In this document: positions 8,725 through 48,526 of the stretch, in pieces
Position numbering within the stretch: the stretch's first letter is position 1
Layout of the letters: each line of letters opens with the position of its first letter
NCBI GenBank assembly: GCA_021413735.1
Contig: JAIOPV010000068.1
Span: forward strand, 1-48,526
DNA from: Planctomycetota bacterium
GTDB taxonomy: Bacteria; Planctomycetota; Planctomycetia; Gemmatales; Gemmataceae
Direction of reading: 5' to 3'
Length of the DNA: 48,526 bases
The notes under the pieces: model-generated
The model's database searches: none
Told to the model about the DNA's origin: nothing
Seen by the model: only the letters and a program-made list of their open reading frames with translations
Translations under genes and position numbers: made by a program

Positions 8725-8852
8725 GGAAGGCTGTTCCAGCACCGCTTTCGGGGCGAATCCGCACACCTGCGGGTCGGTCTGGAACAACCACGCCAAACGC
8801 GGTCTCGACCCGCAGGTGTGCGGATTCGCCCCGGCGGTGCCGTGAGCCTTCC
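8725..8852. repeat. Long imperfect palindrome (128 bp) in a divergent promoter region
   Basis: Arms pair as follows: 8749-8776 with 8806-8833 (28 nt, perfect), 8739-8744 with 8835-8840, and 8725-8732 with 8845-8852. The central spacer is about 29 nt. A second option exists inside, since TGTTCCA upstream of the arm pairs with TGGAACA in the spacer. It lies in the 510-bp gap (8516-9025) between divergently transcribed wrbA-like and DUF1080 genes, so it is not a conventional terminator. It could be a MITE-like mobile palindrome or a regulatory hairpin. Apart from this and the hairpin at 8889-8915 I see nothing else in the gap. Confidence 0.85.
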
Positions 8853-15231: not shown

Positions 15232-15296
15232 ATTGTGGTCCGCTCGCTCCGCGAGCGGTGCTTTCTGAACCGCTCGCGGAGCGAGCGGACCACAAT
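15232..15296. repeat. Perfect 28-bp inverted repeat hairpin between DUF1549 and DUF1501 genes
   Basis: The arms at 15232-15259 and 15269-15296 are exactly complementary, with a 9-nt loop. It begins 5 nt after the DUF1549 stop and ends 12 nt before the next start, so it occupies the whole intergenic space inside an operon-like gene set. No T-run follows. It may stabilise the upstream mRNA or be a mobile palindrome. Confidence 0.9.
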
Positions 15297-26840: not shown

Positions 26841-26946
26841 ATTAGCCACGGATGAACACAGATGAAACACGGATAAGACCAAAGACAATGAAGCAAATTG
26901 CTCTTCTGTCTTATCCGTGTTTCATCTGTGTTCATCCGTGGCTAAT
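26841..26946. repeat. Perfect 39-bp inverted repeat filling a convergent intergenic gap
   Basis: The arm 26841-26879 (starting ATTAGCCACGGATGAACAC) is exactly complementary to 26908-26946, with a 28-nt loop. It spans nearly the whole 119-bp gap between convergent stops at 26835 and 26955. Arms this long without mismatch imply recent insertion or active maintenance. Words such as CCACGGATGAACAC occur as dispersed repeats in many environmental bacterial genomes, as I recall. Confidence 0.92.
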
Positions 26947-27897: not shown

Positions 27898-28037
27898 GAA
27901 GAGTATTCACCACAGAGGGCGCGGAGGACGCAGAGAGAAAACTAAAGGCAGGAGAATTCAGAGTTTGAAGACTCCTCTTTTCTCGGTTTTGGTTTTTCTC
28001 TCTGTGCTCTCCGCGCCCTCTGCGGTGAATACTCTTT
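27898..28037. repeat. Long inverted repeat (45-bp arms, few mismatches) between FAH and S41 genes
   Basis: The arm 27898-27941 (AGAGTATTCACCACAGAGGG...) is near-complementary to 27993-28037. The right arm ends at the stop codon of the minus-strand S41 gene, so the palindrome begins immediately after translation stops. The inner 50 nt contain further purine/pyrimidine complementarity. Confidence 0.88.
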
Positions 28038-31971: not shown

Positions 31972-32041
31972 GTAGGGCCGGCTCAGCCGGCCATCTCGAT
32001 TCGACCGACGTATGAAAGAAGGCCGGCTGAGCCGGCCCTAC
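31972..32041. repeat. Perfect 21-bp inverted repeat between SDR and Rieske genes
   Basis: The arms 31972-31992 (GTAGGGCCGGCTCAGCCGGC...) and 32021-32041 are exact complements. It begins 2 nt after the SDR stop. Each arm is itself near-palindromic (GGCCGGCTCAGCCGGCC). An open frame runs from the right arm into the Rieske gene, but the true start is downstream. Confidence 0.9.
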
Positions 32042-36922: not shown

Positions 36923-38104
36923 TCACCGCCGTTCGTAGAAGTTGCCGGGCTGTCGGCGAACGAGCTTCTTCATTTCGAGCTGCATGAGTGTGCGTGACAG
37001 CTCCGCTACCGGCATCGCGAGTTCGCGGGTAAGTTCGTCCGCATGGCGACGGTTCGCGAGCGCATCGAACACCCGCTGTTGCGTGAGATCGAGCGTTGGT
37101 GCGGGCGCGGGTGGTGGTTCTGGCGAGCGGGGGACGTCAGTCCCCTGTTTCTTCTCCTTCGCACTATCAACAGGGGACTGACGTCCCCCGCTCGCCAAGT
37201 CGCGGTAATCGGCCACCGCGATACCCTTCAGGTCTTCGATCACGTCGTCGGCCGATCGTACGAGGCGGGCACCACCGCGAATCAGTTCCAGGCAGCCGGC
37301 GCTCGCGGAATCGTCTACGCGACCAGGCACCGCGTATACCTCTCGCCCCTGCTCGGCAGCGTGTCGGGCCGTGATGAGTGCCCCACTGCGTGCGTTCGCT
37401 TCCACGACGATCACCGCTCGCGACAAGCCGCTGATGATGCGATTGCGGGCCGGGAACATGCCAGGTTGCGGGTCCATGCCCATCGGCGTTTCCGTGATGA
37501 GACAGCCACGACCCGCAGCGATTTCGTCCGCGAGGGCGGAATGTTCCGGCGGGTAAATCTTCGACAGGCCGCCCGCGAGTGCCGCTACCGTGCGTCCACC
37601 CGCTTCCAGCGCGGCCCGATGAGCGGCACCGTCGATTCCGCGTGCGAGCCCCGAAATGATCGTGAAGCCGGCACGAGCGAGTTCGCGAGCCAGTTGCGCC
37701 GCGATTTTCTGGCCGTAGGTCGTGCAGTTGCGTGAGCCGACGATGCCGATGCTGTTCGCGTCGGCTTCGAGCCATTCGCCACGCACGTACAGCAACGGTG
37801 GCGGGGCCGGTACTTTCGCAAGGGGCTGCGGATATCCAGATAAACCCAACGCCAACACGCCGGTCGCGTGCTTCTCCATAAGCCGCAATTCGGGTTCGAT
37901 GTCCACTGTGCGAAGGGCCGCAGCCAATCCGATTGCGGTCTTCTCGCCGATGTGCGGAATTTCCGCGAGTTGTGTCGCCGTGGCTTGTCGGGCAAGTGTC
38001 GCCGAGCCGAAACGTTCCAGAAGCGCGGCGGTCAGCTTCGGCCCAAGACCGGGCACGAGAGCCAACGCCAGATGATCCCGAACCGCATCTGAAATGTCGG
38101 GCAT
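36923..38104 (-). CDS. dprA: DNA-processing protein DprA with palindrome-derived linker
   Basis: The 393-residue protein contains a helix-hairpin-helix segment (ALVPGLGPKLTAALLERFG), a Rossmann-type DprA core (SIGIVGSRNCTTYGQ, TIISGLARGIDGAAHRAAL, TVAALAGGLSKIYPPEH, MFPARNRIISGLS, VVEANARSGALITA) and a C-terminal winged helix (RVFDALANRRHADELTRELAM). DprA loads RecA on incoming single-stranded DNA during transformation. Residues 303-328, between core and winged helix, are encoded by a perfect palindrome (37121-37197). The ATG at 38104 lacks a clear Shine-Dalgarno but is the family start. The LRR gene follows with a 4-nt overlap. Confidence 0.95.
   Translation of the reverse strand: MPDISDAVRDHLALALVPGLGPKLTAALLERFGSATLARQATATQLAEIPHIGEKTAIGLAAALRTVDIEPELRLMEKHATGVLALGLSGYPQPLAKVPAPPPLLYVRGEWLEADANSIGIVGSRNCTTYGQKIAAQLARELARAGFTIISGLARGIDGAAHRAALEAGGRTVAALAGGLSKIYPPEHSALADEIAAGRGCLITETPMGMDPQPGMFPARNRIISGLSRAVIVVEANARSGALITARHAAEQGREVYAVPGRVDDSASAGCLELIRGGARLVRSADDVIEDLKGIAVADYRDLASGGRQSPVDSAKEKKQGTDVPRSPEPPPAPAPTLDLTQQRVFDALANRRHADELTRELAMPVAELSRTLMQLEMKKLVRRQPGNFYERR
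37121..37197. repeat. Perfect 29-bp inverted repeat inside dprA, in frame
   Basis: 37121-37149 and 37169-37197 are exactly complementary around a 19-nt loop. The core words are GGGGGACGTCAGTCCCC. It encodes part of a low-complexity linker (LASGGRQSPVDSAKEKKQGTDVP) of DprA without breaking the frame, in a position where family members vary in length. The arrangement matches a palindromic element inserted into a tolerant protein site. Confidence 0.92.
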
Positions 38105-38236
38105 GGGAAGCGTGTATGTCAGGTATTGGGTCGCGGGATCGAAAAGACAAGCCCGCCAACTCTTCTTTCGGTATACACACAGAACTAGCAATCCGGTGTC
38201 ACTGACCGCATAATGCACACCGTTCGGCGACTCGCC

Positions 38237-42803: not shown

Positions 42804-45494
42804 ATGCCATCCCGACCCCGCATCATCGCTCCGGCCGCGTTGCTGCTGCTCGTCAGCGCAGCTGCGGCAGAGACGCCTCCGGCCGATCCTGCTGTTGCCG
42901 CGAAGGTCGAATTCTTCGAGAAGAAGGTTCGGCCGATTCTGGTGGACCACTGCCATCACTGCCATTCGGCAGACACGAAACCAGCCGGCGGATTGCGAGT
43001 CGATGACCGCAACGGCCTCTTCCTCGGCGGGAATACCGGCCCAGCCGTCGTGCCAGGCAACCCCGAGAAGAGTCTGCTTCTGAAGCGGATCGGCCCTGAG
43101 AACGCCAAGCGTCGGATGCCGCTGGAAGGCAAGCATCTGACCGAGGAACAGACCGAGATCATCGCCAAGTGGATCAAGGACGGAGCCGCGTGGCCAGCAA
43201 TCCGAATTCCTGCTTCGCTCGGCAAGATCCGGCCTGAGTACGAGCAGTTGAGGAAAGAACATTGGGCCTGGCAACCACTCACGAAGCCTGCGGTTCCGGC
43301 GGTGAATGACGCAGCGTGGGCACGCGACGACATCGACCGTTTCCTGCTTGCGAAGCTCGACGCCAAGGGATTGAAGCCCGTCGGCGACGCGGACAAGGTC
43401 ACGCTGATTCGCCGGGTCACATTCGATCTGACGGGGTTGCCTCCGACGCCTGCCGAGATCGATGCGTTCGTGAAAGACAGCAGCCCGAATGCGTTTGAGC
43501 AGGTGGTGGATCGATTGCTCGCGAGTTCGGCATTCGGCGAACGGTGGGGTCGGCACTGGCTCGACGTCGCCCGCTATGGCGAAAGCACGGGACCATCGCG
43601 GAACATCCCGTATCCGCACGCCTGGAAGTACCGCGATTACGTCATCGACTCCGTGAACGCCGATGTGCCGTATGATCGATTCCTGCGCGAACAGATCGCG
43701 GGCGACCTGCTTGCCAAGGCGGAAGGCTTCGCCAAGGCGGAAGGCGGAGGGCAGAAGGCGGAAAACGAAAGCGGTTGGGGGATATTCTCCGCCTTCCGCC
43801 TTCCGCCCTCCGCCTTTGTTGATCGGCTCCTGACCGCAACTGGCTTCCTTGCCCTCGGCGTGAAGGACGTGAACCAGCGCTTCAAGGTGCGGTTCATCAT
43901 GGACAACGTTGATGAGCAGATCGACACAGTGACTCGCTCGATTCTCGGGTTGACGGTCAGTTGTGCCCGCTGCCACGACCACAAGTTCGACCCGGTTCCG
44001 ACAACCGATTACTACGCGATCGCCGGCATCTTCACCAGCACCGACAACGCCGCCGGAGTGCGAAACCTGATGGGCGGTGGTGGCCTCGCTTATTACGTAC
44101 CAGACATGCTCGTGAAGCTCTCCGGCAGCGCTCCGCCGGCCGATCCCGCACGGCTTGCCAAGTTGAAGGCCGATTTCGAGGAAGCCAAGAAAGCCTGGGA
44201 CGCGATTCGAGGCACACCAGCCGGCACGAAGATCGCTGCGAACGGGCAGCCGACGCAGCGACCGTACCGGCTCAAGTTCGAGGCACTTCAGACTGAACTA
44301 AACTCGCTCACGGACCCAGCAGCGCGAGGGCAGGCAGTTCACGGCGTTCGCGACGCCAAGACACTGGCCGACACCGAAGTTCGCATTCGCGGCGAAGCCG
44401 AGAAGCTCGGACCAATCGTGCCTCGTGGCTTCCTCACGGCGTTCACAGTGCCGGGCGCTGCGAACGTCAATCCGAAGCAAAGCGGCCGGCTCGAACTCGC
44501 GAACTGGCTCACGAGCGCGAAGAATCCGCTGACTCCGCGTGTGGCCGTCAACCGTATCTGGCAGCATTTGTTCGGCACGGGCATCGTGAACACGGTCGAC
44601 AACTTCGGCGTCACGGGCGGGGCACCGTCGCATCCAGAACTGCTCGATCACCTCGCGAATCGCTTCATTGCGGATGATTGGTCGGTGAAGAAGTTGGTGC
44701 GTGCGGTCGTGCTGACACACGCTTACCAGTTGAGTGCGGAAGCGACGCCCGCGAACACGGCTGCCGATCCGGGCAACCGTCTCGTGTGGCGGCACACACC
44801 GCGACGCCTGACGGCTGAAGAGATTCGCGACGCGACTCTCGCCGCTGCCGGAACCCTCGACGTGAAACGCCCAGGCGGTTCACCGGCGCAGAGCCTTCGC
44901 ATGGTCGAGATGTTGGACAACGGTCCGGAAGCCCGCACCATCAACGAGAAGGCCGACGCCAGCATGAACCGCAGCGTTTACTTGCCGTTGCTTCGTGGTG
45001 TCGTGCCGCATTCGCTCGAAGTGTTCGACCCCGCGGAACAAACGCTCGTCACCGGCAACCGCGACGCGACCACCGTTCCAAGTCAGGCGTTGTATCTGCT
45101 GAACGGCTCCTTCGTGCGTCGGCAATCGCTGATCCTCGCGGAACGTCTGTTGAAGCCGAACGCCAGCGATTCGGAACGCATTACTGAGGCTTATCGTCGC
45201 GCGTTGGGTCGTGCCCCCACGAAGACCGAGGTTGCACGGGCGCGAGCGTTCCTCGATGAGTACGAATCGGAATCGCGTCAGTTCTACCCGGACAATCTCG
45301 CACCTGCACCGCGTCGCGTGAAGACCGCCGAACCGGCCAAGGTCGAGGAACCGCCGTTCGATCCCGATCAGGTCGATCAGACCGGCACCCCAATTCACGA
45401 AGACCTGATCCGTGCGAAGGACGCCCGCACAGCAGCGTGGCTCGCGTTCACGCAGGCGCTCTTTGGCAGCGCCGAGTTCCGATACGTTCGCTGA
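42804..45494 (+). CDS. PSCyt1-DUF1549-DUF1553 protein (planctomycete cytochrome family) with palindrome-derived insert
   Basis: The 896-residue protein has a signal peptide (IIAPAALLLLVSAAAAE), a PSCyt1 domain with haem motif CHHCH (VRPILVDHCHHCHSAD), a DUF1549 domain (RRVTFDLTGLPPTPAEIDAFV, RWGRHWLDVARYGES, CARCHDHKFDPV) and DUF1553 (RLELANWLTSAKNPLTPRVAVNRIWQHLFGTGIV...HPELLDHLANRF). Residues 313-338 come from a palindrome (43741-43816) placed between GDLL and DRLLTATGFLALG, where relatives have a shorter link. The ATG at 42804 follows AGGAAG. It pairs with the downstream DUF1501 gene. An extracytoplasmic redox role is the usual inference. Confidence 0.94.
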   Translation: MPSRPRIIAPAALLLLVSAAAAETPPADPAVAAKVEFFEKKVRPILVDHCHHCHSADTKPAGGLRVDDRNGLFLGGNTGPAVVPGNPEKSLLLKRIGPENAKRRMPLEGKHLTEEQTEIIAKWIKDGAAWPAIRIPASLGKIRPEYEQLRKEHWAWQPLTKPAVPAVNDAAWARDDIDRFLLAKLDAKGLKPVGDADKVTLIRRVTFDLTGLPPTPAEIDAFVKDSSPNAFEQVVDRLLASSAFGERWGRHWLDVARYGESTGPSRNIPYPHAWKYRDYVIDSVNADVPYDRFLREQIAGDLLAKAEGFAKAEGGGQKAENESGWGIFSAFRLPPSAFVDRLLTATGFLALGVKDVNQRFKVRFIMDNVDEQIDTVTRSILGLTVSCARCHDHKFDPVPTTDYYAIAGIFTSTDNAAGVRNLMGGGGLAYYVPDMLVKLSGSAPPADPARLAKLKADFEEAKKAWDAIRGTPAGTKIAANGQPTQRPYRLKFEALQTELNSLTDPAARGQAVHGVRDAKTLADTEVRIRGEAEKLGPIVPRGFLTAFTVPGAANVNPKQSGRLELANWLTSAKNPLTPRVAVNRIWQHLFGTGIVNTVDNFGVTGGAPSHPELLDHLANRFIADDWSVKKLVRAVVLTHAYQLSAEATPANTAADPGNRLVWRHTPRRLTAEEIRDATLAAAGTLDVKRPGGSPAQSLRMVEMLDNGPEARTINEKADASMNRSVYLPLLRGVVPHSLEVFDPAEQTLVTGNRDATTVPSQALYLLNGSFVRRQSLILAERLLKPNASDSERITEAYRRALGRAPTKTEVARARAFLDEYESESRQFYPDNLAPAPRRVKTAEPAKVEEPPFDPDQVDQTGTPIHEDLIRAKDARTAAWLAFTQALFGSAEFRYVR
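43713..43816. repeat. In-frame palindromic element in the DUF1549 gene
   Basis: A 22-bp arm at 43741-43762 (AAGGCGGAGGGC...) pairs with 43795-43816 with one mismatch. It is preceded by a 15-bp direct repeat, GCCAAGGCGGAAGGC at 43713-43727 and 43731-43745. The reading frame stays open through both arms, coding AKAEG twice and SAFRLPPSAF. A related element lies at 45500-45630. Confidence 0.9.
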
Positions 45495-47052: not shown

Positions 47053-48327
47053 TTACCTCTTCCAATCCACTGGCAAATCGCCCTTCGTCTCGCGAAGAAT
47101 CTCCATCACGGCCCGACGGTCCTCCTTCGTGAGATGTGCGAACTCCTTCGTCTGATCTTTCTCGGTGAGGATTTCCAGGAGCCGCGAGTAAATGCGTGTC
47201 TTCGCCTCGATCGGCAGGCCATCGAAGAGTTTCGAGTAGACGAGATAGCTCAACGGGTAGCGGAACATCCGCGTCTTCAGATCGAACTCACGCAGCGAGC
47301 GCTTCTGTGAGTCGAACGGTCCGCGAGCAGCGAACTCTTTCGCGAACCCGGAAGTGCCCGCCACCGGTTCGGTGAGTTTCGCTTCCTCGCAGAACAACAG
47401 ATATCGCACCACCGACTCACACGCATGATTGATGCGGCGAGTGATCCCCTCACTGCGATATGTCGCAGGCTCACGAAACGCCTTGTTCAATTCTCGCTGT
47501 TCGTGAAGGGCCGAACGAATCTGGAAGTTCGCTCGAATGAGCCGATTCTGCATCTCGCACTGATGTTCGAGCACCATCAACGCGACGATGTCGCTGTGCG
47601 TCGTCGGGTAATTCGCCGCTGTGAAATATGGCTTCAGATCAGTGACATTCGTGTTTTCCGCGTCGTCATCTTGGCCCGGCCAACCGCCGACGATGGAGTT
47701 CCCCATGTGCGTTTGCTTGCCACTGGTACCGGTGACGTACCAGCCACCCCAACGGTCCGCGAATGGTGTCGAGTGATCGACTCGCTTTGTGCCGCGCGAG
47801 AACACAGGCTCACCCGTGCGATCCGGTGAAACCGAACGGATCAGATGGCCTGGGAACCCCTGATTGCTTGAAGAACCGTGACACAGCAGGCAGCTTTCGG
47901 TCTGACGAGTGAATGCTACCTCCTTCGCCGGGTTCTGGTCGAGCGTGTAGAACACAGCACCAAGATTGGGATCGGACGCGACGACTTCGAGAACGTCGCC
48001 CCGCTGACAGAACCCCACGGTGACATCATCATTGAAGTAGATGGCTCGCGGCGTCTTCGGCCCGATCCGCGACCGCTGGAGACTGGTTCGCGAGAACACC
48101 AACACCTGCGACGACAGTGGGACATCCAGCTCCTTGAGCAACGACTTCAGGTAGCCGTGGTCGTCGGTGTGTTTCAGTTCCGCGTTGCCTTTGCGGATCT
48201 TCTCGTTGAGCGAGGTGATGACATCGTTGGTTGGGGCGGTGCCGTACTCGATTGGTGGCCGGTCATAGTCCGCAGCGGAGGCCACTCCACACACGGCGAA
48301 GACGAACATGATGGTGAACGATTTCAT
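47053..48327 (-). CDS. Secreted CxxCH protein of unknown function
   Basis: The 424-residue protein has a signal peptide (MKSFTIMFVFAVCGVASA) and a single haem-type motif CLLCH in RQTESCLLCHGSSSNQGFPGHLIRSV, followed by SRGTKRVDHSTPFADRWGGWYVTG and a helical C-terminal half. The pattern resembles exported c-type cytochrome-like proteins of planctomycetes. No family name is certain. The ATG at 48327 has a weak GAGA upstream. It is convergent with the DUF1501 gene and has a perfect palindrome about 90 bp upstream. Confidence 0.8.
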   Translation of the reverse strand: MKSFTIMFVFAVCGVASAADYDRPPIEYGTAPTNDVITSLNEKIRKGNAELKHTDDHGYLKSLLKELDVPLSSQVLVFSRTSLQRSRIGPKTPRAIYFNDDVTVGFCQRGDVLEVVASDPNLGAVFYTLDQNPAKEVAFTRQTESCLLCHGSSSNQGFPGHLIRSVSPDRTGEPVFSRGTKRVDHSTPFADRWGGWYVTGTSGKQTHMGNSIVGGWPGQDDDAENTNVTDLKPYFTAANYPTTHSDIVALMVLEHQCEMQNRLIRANFQIRSALHEQRELNKAFREPATYRSEGITRRINHACESVVRYLLFCEEAKLTEPVAGTSGFAKEFAARGPFDSQKRSLREFDLKTRMFRYPLSYLVYSKLFDGLPIEAKTRIYSRLLEILTEKDQTKEFAHLTKEDRRAVMEILRETKGDLPVDWKR

Positions 48328-48418
48328 CGCGATCTCGCGGCCGACTGAATTATGGATAATGTTATCCTCAATTCTCCGAAAAGTCAAGGAGTTCAGTATA
48401 TTCGCTAAAATCTCGGTC

Positions 48419-48478
48419 GGTATTCGCCGCTTGCGGCGTAGCGATTCTTGGAACGCTACGCCGCAAGCGGCGAATACC
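48419..48478. repeat. Perfect 25-bp inverted repeat upstream of the CxxCH protein gene
   Basis: 48419-48443 (GGTATTCGCCGCTTGCGGCG...) and 48454-48478 are exact complements with a 10-nt loop. The window ends about 50 bp later, so the upstream neighbour is not visible and the element could instead be the tail of a gene beyond the edge. Confidence 0.9.
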
Positions 48479-48526
48479 ATATCCCGGATGAAATGACTTG
48501 TCGCCTCCGTCGTAATTCACGTTAGC

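What the first reader, a model, noticed from the sequence alone, without database searches (positions are those of the whole stretch)
37121..37197. Perfect palindrome inserted in frame in dprA linker
A 29-bp perfect inverted repeat with a 19-nt loop lies inside a conserved competence gene and encodes a Ser/Pro/Lys-rich linker between the Rossmann core and the winged helix. The sequence is unrelated to the other coding palindrome, so more than one family seems able to enter genes without breaking them. DprA itself handles incoming DNA, which makes the location curious but possibly accidental.
Basis: partly seen in the sequence, partly recalled or inferred. Interest (0 to 1): 0.68.

Follow-up and report, generated by a model that had tools for sequence, protein, structure and literature searches.

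The report
Mobile palindrome inside DprA's linker
A 77-base palindrome, one of dozens of related copies in this planctomycete's genome, sits in frame in the flexible link between two parts of the DNA-handling protein DprA, and related or unrelated palindromes have entered links of the repair proteins UvrA and MutL too; such insertions are known from other bacteria, but this family and these shared sites look new.

Summary
In detail: perfect 29-nt inverted arms with a 19-nt loop at 37121-37197, in frame in dprA between SLOG core and winged helix. It is one copy of a dispersed family: 47 half-copies in the genome at up to 3 mismatches (control 0), clearly above control in 13 of 19 genomes of the genus. 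Each arm is a REP-like unit (head GGCGAGCG, 6-bp stem, GTNA loop); two units stand head to head as in a REPIN, and stem cores covary. In two relatives, palindromes with the same head flank a RAYT-like transposase gene on both sides; no such RAYT was found in the window's genome. Of 42 family places examined in that genome 17 lie inside genes, including dprA, mutL, uvrA (twice) and cobW. G013, G010 and G018 carry the whole palindrome or one REP at the same dprA site and frame, with other cores. Across the genus, all 15 uvrA and 6 mutL palindromes fall in four linkers, from several unrelated families, far above the coding baseline. Intragenic REPs with a repair-gene bias were published in 2013 (PMC3733652), so this is a new member of a known kind. 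A neutral, tolerated linker insert is favoured; why pairing persists is open.

The parts
36923..38218 (-). dprA open frame (431 aa); the likelier start is the ATG at 38104 (393 aa)
   Evidence: start from the gene caller
37256..37876 (-). SLOG/DNA_processg_A domain, aa 115-321
   Evidence: PF02481
36941..37120 (-). DprA winged-helix domain, aa 367-426
   Evidence: PF17782
37121..37149 (.). first arm of the palindrome (one REP-like unit)
37150..37168 (.). loop, 19 nt
37169..37197 (.). second arm (inverted REP-like unit)
37130..37145 (-). inner hairpin core GGGGAC-TGAC-GTCCCC of the first arm
37173..37188 (+). inner hairpin core of the second arm

Best explanation
The feature is a REPIN-like element: two head-to-head REP units, non-autonomous, most likely spread by a RAYT-type transposase acting in trans. 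It entered dprA at a permissive, probably disordered inter-domain linker. The half-element has no stop in four or five of its six frames, so many landings leave a gene open, and selection keeps only those. The roughly 25 encoded residues act as a neutral spacer between the SLOG core and the winged helix. Shown: palindrome, dispersed family, covarying cores, in-frame position, REPs at the same site and frame in three other species, palindromes with the same head on both sides of RAYT-like genes in two relatives. Inferred: transposition by a RAYT, neutrality, and one old insertion (rather than renewed insertion) behind the shared dprA site.
For: 47 half-copies, control 0; inverted pairs; stem covariation over 96 distinct halves, 0 of 1000 shuffles reach it; same-head palindromes on both sides of a RAYT-like gene in G008 and G010, whose protein matches Y1_Tnp over its cut-off and REP_Tyr_transpos below its cut-off; 4-5 of 6 frames open in three consensus halves; domain matches on both sides of the element in DprA, MutL, CobW, UvrA and a PKS; G013, G010 and G018 share site and frame; the G013 dprA loop is the best of 27 other elements against the G000 loop (8.0, next 6.5).
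Against: None of the own genome's 11 Y1_Tnp loci, nor the further RAYT-like locus L295, has a palindrome of this family within 1.5 kb, so the exact cognate is not identified. The RAYT-flanking palindromes have a different core (CGCGGC...). No clean empty site. Between G000 and G013 the arms differ at 7 and 8 of 28 places yet keep all but one pair, which simple neutral drift does not explain. Full elements have only 2-5 open frames (13 of 28 fewer than four). The disorder evidence is weak: linker residues 333-372 have pLDDT under 50, but the model as a whole is poor (mean 62.1).
Confidence: 0.66

Rival explanations
1. Renewed insertion at hot spots: the linkers of DprA, UvrA and MutL are hit again and again by different palindromes, and the shared dprA site in several species is convergence or replacement by new copies, not descent.
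For: Unrelated palindromes at the same uvrA place in G000, G014 and G006; all 15 uvrA palindromes fall at three places and all 6 mutL linker palindromes at one. At dprA and uvrA the core matches the genome's common core in G000, G010 and, for uvrA site 2, G001.
Against: Same frame and near-identical borders at dprA in G000, G013, G010 and G018; loop similarity of G000 and G013; the G013 dprA core is a minority type in G013.
Confidence: 0.4
2. The insert is selected: the hairpin in DNA or mRNA, or the encoded linker, tunes DprA (and UvrA, MutL), as conjectured for REPs in repair genes.
For: Pairing kept while sequence changed between G000 and G013; three recombination or repair genes among the carriers; same bias in print (PMC3733652).
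Against: Most dprA orthologues of the genus lack a palindrome: 2 of 16 have one with arms of 16 or more. Carriers are diverse (sulfatase, PKS, CobW and others). Positions cluster in a few tolerant linkers.
Confidence: 0.15
3. A chance palindrome in an ordinary Pro/Ser-rich linker.
For: Low-complexity linkers are normal at this place of DprA.
Against: 47 half-copies elsewhere with control 0; fold z-scores near -14.
Confidence: 0.01

Closest known systems
REPINs with RAYT transposases (PMC3116915; only passages seen)
   Same: Two REP-like hairpins in inverted orientation forming one long hairpin; dispersed, many copies; same-head palindromes flank RAYT-like genes in relatives.
   Different: Head GGCGAGCG; cognate RAYT of this exact core not found; many copies lie inside genes, whereas the paper describes extragenic ones.
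Intragenic REPs and REP dimers of the GTAG and CGTC super-families (PMC3733652; sections 15 and 17 part 1 read, plus passages)
   Same: REP dimers inside genes, encoding 20-30 residues, with many in replication and repair genes including uvrA; REPs at about the same recB site in two Xanthomonas; linkers proposed as tolerant places.
   Different: No GTAG or CGTC tag at the unit's end as I read it; new host genus; dprA and mutL do not occur in that paper's main text (its supplementary tables were not seen).
Rickettsia palindromic elements (RPE; listing only, and mention in PMC3733652)
   Same: Palindromes inserted in frame in unrelated protein genes.
   Different: Different host; no RPE sequence was compared.

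Membership tests
REPIN / RAYT system | REP doublet in inverted orientation forming a hairpin | tested here: met
REPIN / RAYT system | Many dispersed copies, doublets common | tested here: met
   14 of 42 places are pairs
REPIN / RAYT system | A RAYT gene flanked by the same REP | tested here: inconclusive
   Not in the own genome within 1.5 kb. In G008 and G010 a RAYT-like gene is flanked on both sides by palindromes with head GCGAGCGG and another core
REPIN / RAYT system | Predominantly extragenic | tested here: inconclusive
   17 of 42 family places intragenic, 20 intergenic, 5 at gene ends
REPIN / RAYT system | Mobilised by the RAYT | not testable with these tools
   needs an experiment
GTAG/CGTC REP super-families | Unpaired GTAG or CGTC tag at one end of the unit | tested here: not met
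   the constant head is GGCGAGCG; read by eye
GTAG/CGTC REP super-families | Intragenic units occur, often in repair genes | tested here: met
Rickettsia palindromic elements | In-frame insertion in unrelated protein genes | tested here: met
Rickettsia palindromic elements | Sequence homology to an RPE family | not tested
   no RPE sequence was compared

The most novel reading that the evidence does not exclude
In this genus a few inter-domain linkers of DNA repair and recombination proteins (UvrA, MutL, DprA) are recurrent landing places for several unrelated palindromic mobile families, tens of times above the coding baseline, and pairing at an orthologous coding site is kept while its sequence changes, so that the elements either tune these proteins or persist by hairpin-templated correction.
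Probability: 0.25. Interest if true: 0.75.

Novelty: new member of a known kind. Interest (0 to 1): 0.5.

Why it matters
It extends intragenic REPs to Gemmata-like planctomycetes and to DprA and MutL, and gives a comparative system for an old conjecture: do REP insertions in repair genes change mutation or recombination, or do these proteins merely have tolerant linkers? REPs at one dprA site with different cores in different species also offer a natural experiment on how near-perfect palindromes are kept or renewed.

Tried and rejected
Chance linker: rejected. Known RNA family: 9 Rfam matches at E up to 1, all below their gathering scores, 8 of them microRNA precursor models that any long hairpin resembles. 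Cognate RAYT in the own genome: not found (the further own match L308 was checked only for the 8-mer GCGAGCGG, one lone hit). Length-multiple-of-three test: uninformative. A coding test on 300-nt flanks was noisy, missing dprA, cobW and mutL, and was replaced by a gene caller. Structure prediction was poor. My working notes said at least four unrelated families in the mutL linkers; by eye I can defend two besides this one, and the report says no more.

Limits and rows dropped. The gene caller is my own codon model trained on this genus. For one search I left out 8 of the 60 matches as likely chance; of its 42 places one intragenic row (L195:4315) and one intergenic row (L190:3045) are probably not of this family, and 12 of the 17 intragenic ones are single halves, weaker evidence than the 5 pairs. 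The strict palindrome criterion did not count the 88%-complementary palindrome 43734-43816, which also lies in a called gene. The shuffle control used simulated dinucleotide chains of the two contigs, not of the window. uvrA and mutL were examined because G000 carries copies there; no control set of other long-linker proteins was tested, so repair genes and tolerant linkers are not separated. mutL was searched in only 20 relatives, so G013, G014, G015, G016, G017 and G018 mutL were not seen. dprA was not found in G003 and G015 and is partial in G010; uvrA of G015 and G018 was not recovered, and sites 1 and 2 could not be read in G003 and G004. One of the 7 mutL palindromes (G003, aa 7-37) lies outside the matched gene and is dropped. 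Related sequences weaken the shuffle test.

Literature: Gemmata and palindromic: 40 papers, 15 listed, none read; one, PMC4672568, is a Gemmata genome paper; 2 papers listed; 2; 6; 10; only PMC3733652. I claim no more than that these searches showed me no report of this family. PMC8049555: passages only.

Full report
What is there. The inverted repeat is as described: 29-nt arms at 37121-37149 and 37169-37197, fully complementary, 19-nt loop. It lies in the dprA frame on the minus strand, between the SLOG domain (aa 115-321) and the winged helix (aa 367-426), and folds far better than shuffles as DNA and as RNA.

A dispersed family. The 24-nt half occurs 47 times in the 9.8-Mb genome with up to 3 mismatches, the reversed control 0 times. 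Many copies are inverted pairs; of 28 full elements collected from G000 and G013 the loops between the 24-nt halves are 19-40 nt. Each arm is itself a hairpin behind a constant head: GGCGAGCG, six paired bases, loop GTNA. A pattern that fixes head, loop and one base but not the stem matches in 17 of 19 genomes of the genus. Four of these 17 (G006, G007, G009, G012) have only 1-3 matches, no more than the control or 2 against 0, so the family is clearly present in 13, with up to 229 matches (G015) against controls of 0-4. Over 96 distinct halves printed the stem covaries: 82% of pairs formed against a shuffled mean of 65%, 61 double changes against 17, 0 of 1000 shuffles reaching either. The common core differs by genome: GGGGAC in G000 and G013 (100 of 142 rows printed), GGGGGC in G004, G018, G014, G010 and G001. 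For G008 only eight rows were printed, five of them GGGGAC; G016 rows were not printed.

Relation to RAYT. The own genome has 11 Y1_Tnp matches; none has a palindrome of this family within 1.5 kb. In G008 and G010 a RAYT-like gene is flanked on both sides by palindromes starting (G/A)GCGAGCGGCGCGGCGT(C/A)AGCC: same head, other core. Its protein matches Y1_Tnp over the cut-off and NCBIfam's REP-associated tyrosine transposase below the cut-off. A 55%-identical protein is encoded in the own genome without such flanks. Other RAYT-like genes of the genus are flanked on both sides by other palindromes, for instance L081, L178, L296 and L299. The family is therefore REPIN-like and close to RAYT-associated elements, but its own RAYT is not identified.

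Where copies sit. In about 396 kb of G000 taken without regard to the family, plus the window, 44 inverted repeats with arms of 18 or more were found (0 in six simulated controls at 16 or more): 36 intergenic, 6 overlapping gene ends, 2 intragenic, both of this family, one being the finding itself. Of 42 places of this family examined in G000, 17 are intragenic, 20 intergenic and 5 at gene ends. Carriers include DprA, UvrA (two places), MutL, CobW, a DEAD helicase, two PKS-type proteins, a DUF1501 protein, a sulfatase and a WD40 protein. In DprA, MutL, CobW, UvrA and a PKS there are domain matches on both sides of the element; the sulfatase copy lies inside a domain match. Three consensus halves are open in 4-5 of 6 frames, 28 full elements in 2-5.

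Orthologues of dprA. Matches were found in 56 of 59 genomes; I read the linker of 17 of the 19 genus genomes. It is hypervariable. G013 (77% identity) has a palindrome at the same position and frame with core GCCGGC. Its arms differ from those of G000 at 7 and 8 of 28 places, three stem pairs changing on both sides in each arm, yet its two arms pair with one mismatch. G010 and G018 keep the right-hand REP at the same position and frame with core GGGGGC; the G018 copy is slightly decayed. G001 has what looks like a decayed left half, and G008, sister of G000 in the tree, at most a stub; both are readings by eye. The G013 loop is the best match to the G000 loop among 27 other elements (8.0, next 6.5), a modest sign of common descent. 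Contig lengths identify G008 with PNLP01000014.1 and G013 with LR594584.1, Gemmataceae bacterium CJuql4.

UvrA and MutL. UvrA site 1 could be read in 15 genus genomes: G000, G010 and G016 have elements of this family, G014 and G006 unrelated palindromes, G008 a decayed form by eye, nine have none. At site 2 single REPs occur in G000, G001, G010 and G016, decayed forms in G008, G013 and perhaps G014, none in eight. With arms of 16 or more there are 15 palindromes in 8 of 17 uvrA genes, 7 in 5 of 13 mutL frames (6 inside the matched gene) and 2 in 2 of 16 dprA genes. In own UvrA numbering all 15 lie at three places, about 312-324 (5), 1432-1470 (6) and 1706-1765 (4); the 6 of mutL lie at 459-503. 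Several sequence families share these places by eye. In G008 mutL has an element of this family, with 12-nt matching outer arms, at the place and frame where G000 has a half. Own uvrA also carries a palindrome that shares the 14-mer GCCGCGACGCGGAG with the palindrome beside the RAYT-like gene of L080.

Baseline. Called genes in sampled DNA hold 1 palindrome in 339 kb coding (G000), 0 in 304 kb (G016), 3 in 173 kb (G014) and 2 in 171 kb (G004). In G016, G014 and G004 together the recovered uvrA, mutL and dprA hold 8 (all in uvrA and mutL, none in dprA): in 23.7 kb if stop-to-stop frames are counted, in about 18.8 kb if uvrA and mutL are cut to the matched part. Against 5 in 648.5 kb this is some 44- to 55-fold. 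The genes were chosen because G000 has copies there; see Tried and rejected.

Prior art. PMC3733652 (sections 15 and 17 part 1 read, plus passages) reports intragenic REPs and dimers, a bias to replication and repair genes including uvrA, REPs at about the same recB site in two Xanthomonas species, and linkers as tolerant places. dprA and mutL do not occur in its main text. Hence a new member of a known kind.

Mechanism. Shown: a dispersed REP-dimer family, an in-frame place in a linker, REPs at the same site in other species, RAYT-like genes with same-head palindromes in relatives. Inferred: spread by a RAYT in trans, survival only in open frames, a neutral spacer. Open: whether the shared dprA site is one old insertion whose arms were corrected or selected, or renewed insertion at a tolerant place. 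I favour descent slightly for dprA, and repeated insertion for uvrA site 1, where unrelated palindromes share the place.

Noticed in passing
   Followed up: partly
window 8749-8833, 15232-15296, 26841-26946, 27899-28036, 31972-32041, 48419-48478: Further inverted repeats of different sequence; by the open-frame list five lie between the longer frames, the last overlaps the 5' end of a frame (47053-48480).
   Followed up: no
L024 and L034, 1501-1532: 32-bp collapsed forms of the element (head, stem, GTNA loop, stem, inverted head), as if the inner half had been deleted.
   Followed up: no
L043 (G008) and L052 (G004), dprA linkers: Both share a stretch GTAGCCGCGACGCG.AGCGGAGCG (VAATRSGA), perhaps another repeat family; its copy number was not searched.
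   Followed up: no
L081/L303, L178/L304, L296, L299: RAYT-like genes flanked on both sides by palindromes of other families, so the genus seems to hold several RAYT/palindrome pairs.
   Followed up: partly
L227 (own uvrA), aa 1436-1461: A palindrome of another family, GCCGCGATGCGGAGTCCTCG, in frame in uvrA and similar to the palindrome beside the RAYT-like gene of L080.
   Followed up: partly
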